Positions 47,729-50,700 of a stretch of DNA of 64,000 bases are shown in pieces; the first letter of the stretch is position 1, and each line of letters opens with the position of its first letter. The DNA lies in contig JADBWK010000090.1 of NCBI GenBank assembly GCA_020404895.1, positions 1 to 64,000 of the forward strand, given 5' to 3'. The DNA is from Pseudanabaena sp. M085S1SP2A07QC (GTDB lineage Bacteria; Cyanobacteriota; Cyanobacteriia; Pseudanabaenales; Pseudanabaenaceae). A program made the translations under genes and the position numbers. The notes under the pieces were generated by a model. That model did not search any database, was not told the origin of the DNA, and worked only from the letters and a program-made list of their open reading frames with translations.

Positions 47729-50700
47729 CTATTGGTTAGAATCTTTTTCTTGTGCAGCGATCGCTTGGTTAAGGTGCAATAGCTTTTCTAGTAGGTCATC
47801 ACTGTCGCTAAAGCCGTAAAGTTGCATTACGAGTTTGTCGAGCTTGGCATGGAGTTTATAGAGTTGGCTGGCGGGTTCGTGAAAGTATTCGTTATAAAGT
47901 TTGGTGATGCCCCATTGTTTGCTCTCCATCTGCTCAGTGCGATATTGATGTAGCTCTTGCATCGCGGCGCGGATTTGTTGGACAAGACCCTCACCCCCAG
48001 CCCCTCTCCCTAGGGGAGAGGGGAGAAACGAGGAGATTTGGGTTAGGGTTTCTTCTGGATAGTCGAGAATAGCTTGATTGGAGAAACGAATTACGTTAAA
48101 TCCGTGGGATTGCATCCATTGATCGCGATCGCCATCACGTTCTTGTTGATTTTGATGGATGTCGCCATCGAGTTCGATGACTAGCTTGGCTTCATGGCAG
48201 TAGAAATCTGCGATGTATTGCCCAATATTGTGCTGGCGGCGAAATTTTGCTTCAAATAAACGGCGATCGCGTAGACATTCCCATAATACTTTTTCCGCAG
48301 GAGTCTGCTTTTGGCGAAGTTCCCGCGCTCTCTGCAAAAGAACTTGAGGAATCTGTCGTTCTCTACCTGCAAGTTTATTGCCCTCACCCCTAGAAATCTG
48401 GGAGGCTTCACTTGCAAGTTTATTGCCCTCACCCCTGCCCCTCTCCCTAGGGGAGAGGGGTTCTGAGTCTTCTTGCTCCCCCTCTCCCCTAGGGAGAGGG
48501 GGCTGGGGGGTGAGGGCAGGAAATGGGAATGTCTCGAAGCAAGTTGTATTGGTATAGCGAGTATCGCCTTTAAGTGTTGAACTTTGAGCTTTTACCCATA
48601 AGCGATGTAATTTTGATGTGAGGATACCTAAGATATAAAAATCATCAGAAGCAATAACCATATTTGCCTCACAAGGCAAGATAGAAATATCTACAGGGGT
48701 AAACATTACCCACTTAGCTACTTTAGGTAGTGCAAAGTAGCATGATAAACCTTGTAAAGCTTTTCTCATTGCAGGGCAATGTTCTCCAAATCTCCACCAA
48801 TATATTCGTCTAGAATCTCGTCGATTTTTATCTCTTTCAGGTTTAACTTTTTCTCTAACTCTTTGCAAAGGTAATTTATATTCAGATGCTTGTTCGATTG
48901 ACATATCGTTAAAGTCAATCACCCAGTCTAGTTTTTCAAAAGGGTTAATTAATCCTTTCCCGTCTATCATTGGCTTAAGAACATCTGAATTTTTAGGATC
49001 TGTCTGTATCCATAACTGTGCTTCTTTTTCAGAAACTATAAATCCTTTACCCCTTAATCCACAGGATTCAAAGGATATTAATTTATTCTCTTTAAGCCTT
49101 ACTGCACTTGAAACAGAAATTTCAGACTTAAGAGATGAAGAAATAAATGGGACTTGTTTGCTATCAAGAAATAATTGCTTTTGAGGTTGTTTAGACCAGT
49201 TAACAATACTTACATGAACGGCTGCATCTCCAGACCATTCCTGAGTTGCGATCGCATCATGGATAATCCCCCCATTGCTAACAACATAATCTAAGCTTGC
49301 TTTTCTGCCTGAAACTTGAGCAATAGAGTTTGTACCAACTAAACCCGCTCTACCATTTTCAGATATTAAATCAGTTGTTTTTCTAAACCAAAAAACACAA
49401 AAGTCTGGTTGCCCTTGCACATCAGGAAATTGCTTATAAACTTTTTGAGCGTAGTCGTCACCAAATTCTTGTCTAAATTTTTTACCGCCCAAAAACGGCG
49501 GATTGCCAATAATTGCATCAGCCTCAAACCAATCAGAAAACAAAGCATCCTGACAAACAATATTTTGATCTAACGTATCCAAAGGTAACGCAGGTTCAAA
49601 TAGACCATGCTTATCGATCGCCACTTTCCGAGCGATCATCAAAGTTACCCTAGCCAACTCAACCGCAAACGGATTTATATCCATACCAAAAAACTGATTA
49701 GGTGTAACTAACCCCATTTGCACTTGCTGCGATTTTTGTCTAGAAGCCAACTTAGCAAGCAACATCACCTCGATCCGCTTTAGCTCTTGGTAAGCAAGAT
49801 ATAGGAAATTTCCAGACCCACAGGCAGGGTCTAAAACTCGATAACTCTGTAGTTCTAATTGCAAAATCTTAAGATCATCGATTTTATTAGCCGCCTCGAT
49901 CTTCTCTTCCCAATACCGAGTGATTGTCGGTACAACAATCTTCATGATGTCCACTTCAGACGTGAAGTGCATCCCCCTTGCATGACGTTCCTTAGAGTCT
50001 GAAGTCGCTTCAAAAATACTGCCAAAAATAGCAGGTCTAATTTTGCCCCAATTTTCCCTAGCCGCAGTATCTAAAATTTCTAACTCATTCCTTTCAAGGT
50101 CGATCGCATGAATCTCTGTGAATAAGCCCCCATTAAAATAATCAACACCTTTATAACGACCTGCTGGGGTAATCCCCTTATGGTTCATCTCTTGGAATAA
50201 ACCACCCAAAAGATCGTAACTACTTGCCCCACTAATACAATCTTGCACACAGGCAATAAACAAATCATCAGGTAATAGACCCCGATCCTCTGCAAACATG
50301 GCTAACACACATTGCAAAATAAACTTCTGCGCGATTAGCTCTGTAAAACCATCTTTAGCGGCTCTCGCCTTGAGTAACCTGTAAAGCTCACCCAAACGCT
50401 TAGCCGTGTTAATCGTCACCTCTACTTGGTTATTTCTAAATACAGGTGTTGTATTGACCGCAATCTCCATAAAGCGAAATGCACTAGACCGACTAGGCAA
50501 ATCAGCGATCGCAACAGTATCTACAGGCGTATCAACTTGCAGATTAAAGTCATAAATCCAAAACTCATCAAAATTGCACAGCACTACATATCTGGGGCGA
50601 TCGGGTACAAGATAAGTCCAATATTGAAAAGCTTGCGAATAATGCTTATTAAGATCCTCACCCCGCTTTTTCATCTCGATCAAAACGCCGCCCTTACCAT

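What the first reader, a model, noticed from the sequence alone, without database searches (positions are those of the whole stretch)
47988..48516. In-frame nested nuclease cassette inside a single-chain restriction-modification enzyme
Seen: the RM ORF stays open while the typical TFPFP...QQIRAAMQELHQYR C-terminal junction is interrupted by ~529 bp bounded by near-perfect inverted repeats (CCCTCACCCCCAGCCCC...TAGGGGAGAGGGG). It encodes a complete DUF559/Vsr-like domain with an apparently intact motif (IADFYCHEAKLVIELDGDIH). Both termini translate into the PLPRGEG/SPLGRGAGGEG peptide. Knowledge: the G/C-rich palindrome is a common cyanobacterial interspersed repeat, and DUF559 ORFs are often found near it. 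Inference: a mobile nuclease unit that survives by inserting in frame, giving a two-nuclease RM protein.
Basis: partly seen in the sequence, partly recalled or inferred. Interest (0 to 1): 0.85.

Follow-up and report, generated by a model that had tools for sequence, protein, structure and literature searches.

The report
In-frame mobile nuclease inside a restriction enzyme
A small DNA-cutting domain, bracketed by palindromic repeats, has been dropped in frame into a cyanobacterial restriction-modification enzyme, and relatives of the same repeat-bracketed cutter sit in frame inside many other proteins (even single-copy housekeeping enzymes) across bacteria and archaea, so it looks like a mobile element that lives inside proteins without being spliced out.

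Summary
A 1061-aa MmeI-type restriction-modification gene carries ~533 bp (47987-48519) where uninterrupted Pseudanabaena relatives have ~19 bp. The insert is an open, in-frame DUF559 (Vsr/EDxHD-fold) nuclease domain with all family-invariant residues; one border is a complete REPIN-like palindrome dimer, the other half of one. Relatives of the cassette with the same border peptides lie in frame in about 28 site clusters: restriction methylases, HsdR/HsdS/HsdM, Type ISP and DUF1156 proteins, PurL, LeuRS, CCA-transferase, PriA and IspE, in cyanobacteria, many other phyla and archaea. In four genomes the only priA carries it. Two genomes hold just two perfect palindromes, both flanking the cassette. 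In about 30 of 110 loci the nuclease is bracketed by direct, locus-specific repeat copies. Nuclease-free repeats also sit in frame in this genome, and one occupies the window's own site in a relative. Best explanation: a REPIN-borne, homing-endonuclease-like element that enters proteins in frame without splicing. In-frame REPs and EDxHD homing nucleases are known; I found no report joining them. Homing activity and a second-nuclease function are inferred, not shown.

The parts
47729..50914 (-). MmeI-type single-chain restriction-modification gene, 1061 aa, host of the insert
50366..50893 (-). Host N-terminal nuclease domain (MmeI_N, aa 8-183) with conserved D63, E80, K82
49172..49894 (-). Host N6-adenine methyltransferase domain (aa 341-581)
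48512..49063 (-). Host target recognition domain (aa 618-801 by Pfam; its last few residues touch the insert border)
47987..48519 (-). Whole insert, ~533 bp, replacing ~19 bp of the empty site
   Evidence: DNA comparison with G024, G025, G017 (empty) and G026 (occupied)
48425..48519 (-). Gene-5' border: complete REPIN-like dimer (two inverted REPs with a short spacer), translated as ALTPQPPLPRGEGEQEDSEPLSPRERGRGEG
48347..48436 (-). 45-bp tandem duplication between the border repeat and the nuclease (copies 48347-48391 and 48392-48436, 80% identical)
48017..48379 (-). Conserved cassette core, aa 846-966 (NKLAGRERQIP...SSFLPS)
48023..48337 (-). DUF559 nuclease domain (PF04480), aa 860-964, with the family-invariant residues
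47987..48023 (-). Gene-3' border: half dimer (one REP), translated as PSPLGRGAGGEG

Best explanation
The insert is one copy of a widespread mobile element: a REPIN-like palindrome pair carrying a ~120-codon DUF559 (Vsr/EDxHD-type) nuclease, with no splicing domain. It can sit as a free gene or in frame inside a host protein, where the repeats are translated as Pro/Gly/Glu/Arg-rich linkers and the nuclease hangs from a loop or domain boundary, so the host protein keeps working. Proposed mechanism: (1) nuclease-free REPINs land in frame in genes and survive where the loop tolerates them [the state is shown, the movement inferred]; (2) the nuclease cuts REP palindromes, and repair or recombination through REP homology brings a nuclease-REPIN unit into a resident in-frame REPIN, often duplicating it and keeping the frame [inferred from direct, locus-specific copies]; (3) recombination between those copies can remove the nuclease and leave a single REPIN scar [inferred; single repeats at the same site are seen]; (4) copies that stay, mostly in restriction-modification proteins, are kept intact by purifying selection, possibly as a second nuclease of the host enzyme [selection shown, function inferred].
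For: Empty and occupied alleles at DNA level (a second host). Same cassette at another site of the same enzyme and in ~28 site clusters of unrelated hosts, including the only priA of four genomes and the only ispE above cut-off of two, and LeuRS and PurL with two cassettes each. Hairpins 5-7 times enriched beside the cassette, also beside stand-alone copies. Two genomes whose only two perfect palindromes flank the cassette. Palindrome-DUF559 co-occurrence, within-family permutation p=1.5e-4. Direct locus-specific repeat copies around the nuclease in 31 of 110 loci, period divisible by 3 in 12 of 14 nested copies. Single repeats without nuclease, in frame, in the same genome and at the window's site in P0115. 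Fold match to 3hrl and the homing endonuclease I-Bth0305I. dN/dS of close nested pairs mostly 0.03-0.22. Some palindrome-rich genomes show no Y1 transposase, so no RAYT-type mobiliser was found there.
Against: No cleavage, transposition or homing was observed. Many loci, the window included, do not show the full direct-repeat structure. Long retention at one site under purifying selection fits a domesticated domain as well as a selfish one. Twelve palindrome-bearing genomes lack a DUF559 match, so another agent can spread at least some palindromes of this shape. The cassette tree is poorly resolved and searches were seeded with this subfamily.
Confidence: 0.6

Rival explanations
1. Domesticated accessory domain: restriction-modification proteins recruited the DUF559 nuclease as an extra DNA-cleaving module. 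The repeats are only the recombination substrate that brought it in, and there is no self-mobility today.
For: Strong host bias to R-M proteins, purifying selection over large dS at one site, several relatives sharing the window's insertion while the methylase/TRD segment was exchanged.
Against: Insertions in PurL, LeuRS, CCA-transferase, PriA and IspE have no obvious use for a DNase; many different sites and subunits within R-M systems; two copies in one protein.
Confidence: 0.22
2. Passive passenger: REPINs are moved by some other transposase, and the nuclease gene merely hitchhikes between two of them.
For: REPs elsewhere are thought to be moved by RAYT transposases (PMC3733652); palindromes also occur in genomes without a DUF559 match; most palindrome-rich genomes do have some Y1 transposase.
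Against: Palindrome-rich genomes G063, G079, G113 and G123 have no Y1 transposase match but do have DUF559; association with DUF559 within families; divergent DUF559 clades come with different repeat families.
Confidence: 0.15
3. Ordinary fixed gene fusion, or an assembly artefact, with chance G+C-rich repeats.
For: Several Pseudanabaena relatives share the same insertion.
Against: Independent genomes, empty alleles, many unrelated hosts and repeat borders.
Confidence: 0.02

Closest known systems
Rickettsia palindromic elements and intragenic GTAG/CGTC REPs (PMC10969869, PMC3733652)
   Same: Palindromic repeats or dimers inserted in frame in protein genes, often in DNA-metabolism proteins, translated as extra peptide
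   Different: Those encode only short peptides (20-82 aa for REPs); here the element carries a complete conserved nuclease domain, and the repeat core is CCCTCTCCC-type
REPINs with RAYT transposases
   Same: Inverted REP pairs dispersed in the genome and flanking a gene for a DNA-cutting enzyme
   Different: The enzyme is a DUF559 nuclease rather than a Y1/HUH transposase, and the unit sits in frame inside proteins
EDxHD homing endonucleases (I-Bth0305I, PDB 3r3p)
   Same: Predicted fold of the catalytic domain; a nuclease lodged inside another gene
   Different: No intron or intein here; the nuclease stays in the host protein; no target known
Inteins with homing endonuclease domain
   Same: Nuclease nested in frame in conserved proteins
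   Different: No splicing domain found; repeats act as linkers
MmeI-type Type IIL restriction enzymes
   Same: The host gene is an ordinary member with N-terminal nuclease, methylase and TRD
   Different: It carries an extra in-frame nuclease between the TRD and the C-terminal helices

Membership tests
DUF559 (PF04480) | Profile match above the curated cut-off | tested here: met
   127.3 bits against 20.6
EDxHD homing endonuclease | Vsr-like catalytic fold | tested here: met
   Foldseek to 3r3p E 1.6e-4, to 3hrl 1.7e-7; Vsr itself weaker
EDxHD homing endonuclease | Conserved acidic/His active-site residues | tested here: met
   D58, E69, G72, H75 invariant and D71 nearly invariant in 32 copies, all present in the window; not superposed on the 3r3p active site
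EDxHD homing endonuclease | Cuts a cassette-free allele and is copied into it | not testable with these tools
   Empty and occupied alleles exist; activity needs the bench
Intein | Hint/splicing domain around the nuclease | tested here: not met
   No such Pfam or NCBIfam match; borders are translated repeats
REPIN | Two REPs in inverted orientation with a short spacer, dispersed in the genome | tested here: met
   Border dimer 48425-48519; similar dimers elsewhere in the genome
REPIN/RAYT system | Cognate RAYT (Y1) transposase | tested here: inconclusive
   G000 has one 137-aa-frame Y1 match, IS200-like in size; four palindrome-rich genomes have none
GTAG/CGTC REP superfamilies | GTAG or CGTC tag at one end of the stem-loop | tested here: not met
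   By eye, the window repeat ends in CCCTCACCCC/GGGGTGAGGG without either tag
Rickettsia palindromic element-like in-frame repeat | Palindrome in frame within an otherwise intact gene, absent from relatives | tested here: met
   Window and nuclease-free cases in G000
MmeI-type R-M enzyme | MmeI_N, hel, Mtase and TRD in one chain with the nuclease motif kept | tested here: met

The most novel reading that the evidence does not exclude
A general class of selfish elements, non-splicing in-frame homing cassettes: an EDxHD nuclease copies itself into palindromic REPIN scars inside protein genes, uses the translated repeats as ready-made flexible linkers, mobilises REPINs, and seeds new domains in host enzymes of bacteria and archaea.
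Probability: 0.42. Interest if true: 0.93.

Novelty: new variant of a known kind. Interest (0 to 1): 0.83.

Why it matters
Homing endonucleases that invade genes are thought to need an intron or intein to spare the host; this element appears to do without one by turning its own borders into linkers. It offers an enzyme candidate for moving REP-like palindromes that have no RAYT, a route by which nuclease domains enter restriction systems, and a testable mechanism for the birth of multi-domain proteins. It also suggests that many DUF559 fusions in databases are insertions rather than designed architectures.

Tried and rejected
Fixed ancestral fusion: rejected by empty alleles and different sites. 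Assembly artefact: rejected by independent genomes. Intein: no splicing domain. Phage-borne element: one relative among 2.9 million viral contigs and four plasmid records. Palindrome as a chance G+C feature: rejected. Direct duplication of the repeats at all loci: not so, 31 of 110; many others show a single inverted pair. The 100% conserved cassette in P0007 and P0008 as a sign of recent cassette transfer: explained by exchange of the methylase/TRD segment in an otherwise near-identical protein. Excision-neutral period as independent evidence: partly circular, because an open nested frame already requires it. Long-range RNA stem between the borders: predicted (z -8.8) but expected from the inverted repeats, and ribosome bypass was not pursued. 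The 1061-aa model has low confidence in the insert and was used only for predicted disorder of the linkers.

Full report
Observation. The minus-strand ORF 47729-50914 encodes a 1061-aa single-chain enzyme of MmeI type with DUF559 at aa 860-964. Uninterrupted homologues are about 892 aa and read straight from TCFETFPFP into LV.KIRA. At DNA level three Pseudanabaena relatives have ~19 bp where the window has ~533 bp (47987-48519). The insert begins (gene strand) with CCCTCACCCCCCAGCCCCCTCTCCCTAGGGGAGAGGGG and ends with the inverse. Its 5' border is a complete palindrome dimer, its 3' border half of one. The finding is real and its coordinates are right to a few bases.

The cassette occurs at many sites. 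In P0010 and P0016 (cyanobacteria) the same cassette lies elsewhere in the same enzyme, after VHVSIVNW, with the same kind of border peptides. P0016 has a further repeat peptide without nuclease, and P0115 carries a single repeat dimer without nuclease at exactly the window's site. A search scored on the nuclease part alone returned large proteins of many kinds with PSPLAPLPxGEG / LPSPxGRGAGGEG-like borders. A scan of one genome per species gave 80 loci in cyanobacteria, Verrucomicrobia, Planctomycetes, WOR-3, Nitrospirota, Elusimicrobia, Acidobacteria and others, and in two archaea. Of 71 distinct ones, 35 are nested on both sides, 12 are fused on one side (several cut by contig ends) and 24 stand alone. 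Pooled with the protein hits, 157 nested copies fall into about 28 site clusters (single linkage, so approximate, and the protein search favoured long proteins).

Hosts. Most are restriction-modification proteins: MmeI- and Eco57I-type methylases, HsdM, HsdR at two sites, HsdS, Type ISP proteins, DUF1156 proteins. Others are not: PurL with two cassettes, LeuRS with two (the first lies between residues equivalent to 234 and 242 of Thermus LeuRS, the second near 372), CCA-transferase, PriA just before its Walker A motif, and IspE. In four genomes the cassette-bearing priA is the only priA; in two the cassette-bearing ispE is the only match above the ispE cut-off. These proteins evidently tolerate the insert. 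By contrast, seven nuclease-free repeat insertions typed in this genome lie in UvrD-like helicase, DUF2157, PriA, FGE-sulfatase, MnmE, CHAT and DUF6671 ORFs, not in R-M genes (the last two are near the ORF start and may be outside the true coding region). Sampling differs, so the R-M preference of the nuclease form is suggestive only.

Repeats belong to the element. Perfect hairpins average 1.2 and 1.1 in the left and right 250-bp flanks of nested copies and about 1.5 beside stand-alone ones, against 0.2 in control windows; collapsed to 16 sites, p=6e-4. In G098 and G138, genomes of 5-6 Mb, the perfect-palindrome pattern occurs exactly twice and both copies flank the cassette. Across 198 genomes of the phylum, palindromes and DUF559 co-occur (41 of 53 with palindromes have it, 56 of 145 without; within-family permutation p=1.5e-4; all 10 palindrome-rich genomes of family f29 have it). 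Part of that signal is the cassette's own two palindromes, but it also holds at five or more. Four palindrome-rich genomes show no Y1 transposase.

Anatomy beyond the window. In 31 of 110 loci the nuclease is bracketed by long direct copies, several sharing a locus-specific spacer, i.e. REPIN-nuclease-REPIN, as in L142 and L138. The period is divisible by three in 12 of 14 nested and 3 of 13 stand-alone copies, as expected if only nested ones must keep frame. This is what entry into, and duplication of, a resident in-frame REPIN would leave, and recombination between the copies would leave a single REPIN scar. Both states are seen; the direction of events is inference. Other loci have only one inverted pair around the nuclease.

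The nuclease is intact. Twenty-two columns are invariant among 32 diverse copies, including D58, E69, G72 and H75, with D71 nearly so, and the window copy has all of them. Close nested pairs have dN/dS mostly 0.03-0.22. The predicted fold matches 3hrl and the homing endonuclease I-Bth0305I, more weakly Vsr. The cassette tree is weakly resolved; it groups copies partly by site but needs 45 changes of site where 27 is the minimum, and it puts the two PurL copies together and copies at two sites of one HsdR together.

Interpretation. Most likely this is a REPIN-borne, homing-like nuclease element that lives in frame without splicing, its repeats translated as linkers that a model predicts to be disordered. 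Shown: in-frame insertion, repeat borders, recurrence in unrelated hosts, intact nuclease. Inferred: cleavage of REPINs, homing, excision, and any contribution to restriction. The host enzyme has its own intact nuclease motif, so a two-nuclease protein is plausible but untested.

Prior knowledge. In-frame palindromic elements are known in Rickettsia and for GTAG/CGTC REPs (PMC10969869, PMC3733652). DUF559 has been called EDxHD homing-type in Thermosynechococcus (PMC9403480). No held paper links DUF559 to palindromic repeats or in-frame mobility; papers outside that library may.

Noticed in passing
window 42676-44997 and 46364-47662 (+): Beside the enzyme lie a periplasmic-binding-protein ORF whose C-terminal part looks like a ligand-gated ion channel (FDFRDYPFDSQ motif, by eye) and a second ORF matching the neurotransmitter-gated channel ligand-binding domain, with a dCache/HAMP ORF between them.
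   Followed up: partly
L008, L012, L018, L019, L025 (window's own genome): Nuclease-free palindrome repeats sit in frame in a UvrD-like helicase, a DUF2157 protein, PriA, an FGE-sulfatase protein and MnmE.
   Followed up: partly
L155, L157, L158, L166 and the HsdR group (e.g. L101): In both PriA and HsdR the cassette sits just before the Walker A motif of the helicase core, a recurring structural spot in unrelated proteins.
   Followed up: partly
L039-L044: A divergent DUF559 clade nested in MmeI-type enzymes is bracketed by a different repeat family (SPSLQGGGQ / SPPSKEGQGV peptides), as if nuclease clade and repeat family go together.
   Followed up: no
P0006-P0008 versus window 47729-50914: These relatives match the window protein at 97-100% in the N- and C-terminal parts but only ~50% in the TRD, which suggests exchange of the specificity segment with the cassette left in place.
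   Followed up: no
P0135 (leucyl-tRNA synthetase): The LeuRS with two cassettes has tryptophan at several positions where glycine is expected, hinting at a genome that reads TGA as glycine.
   Followed up: no
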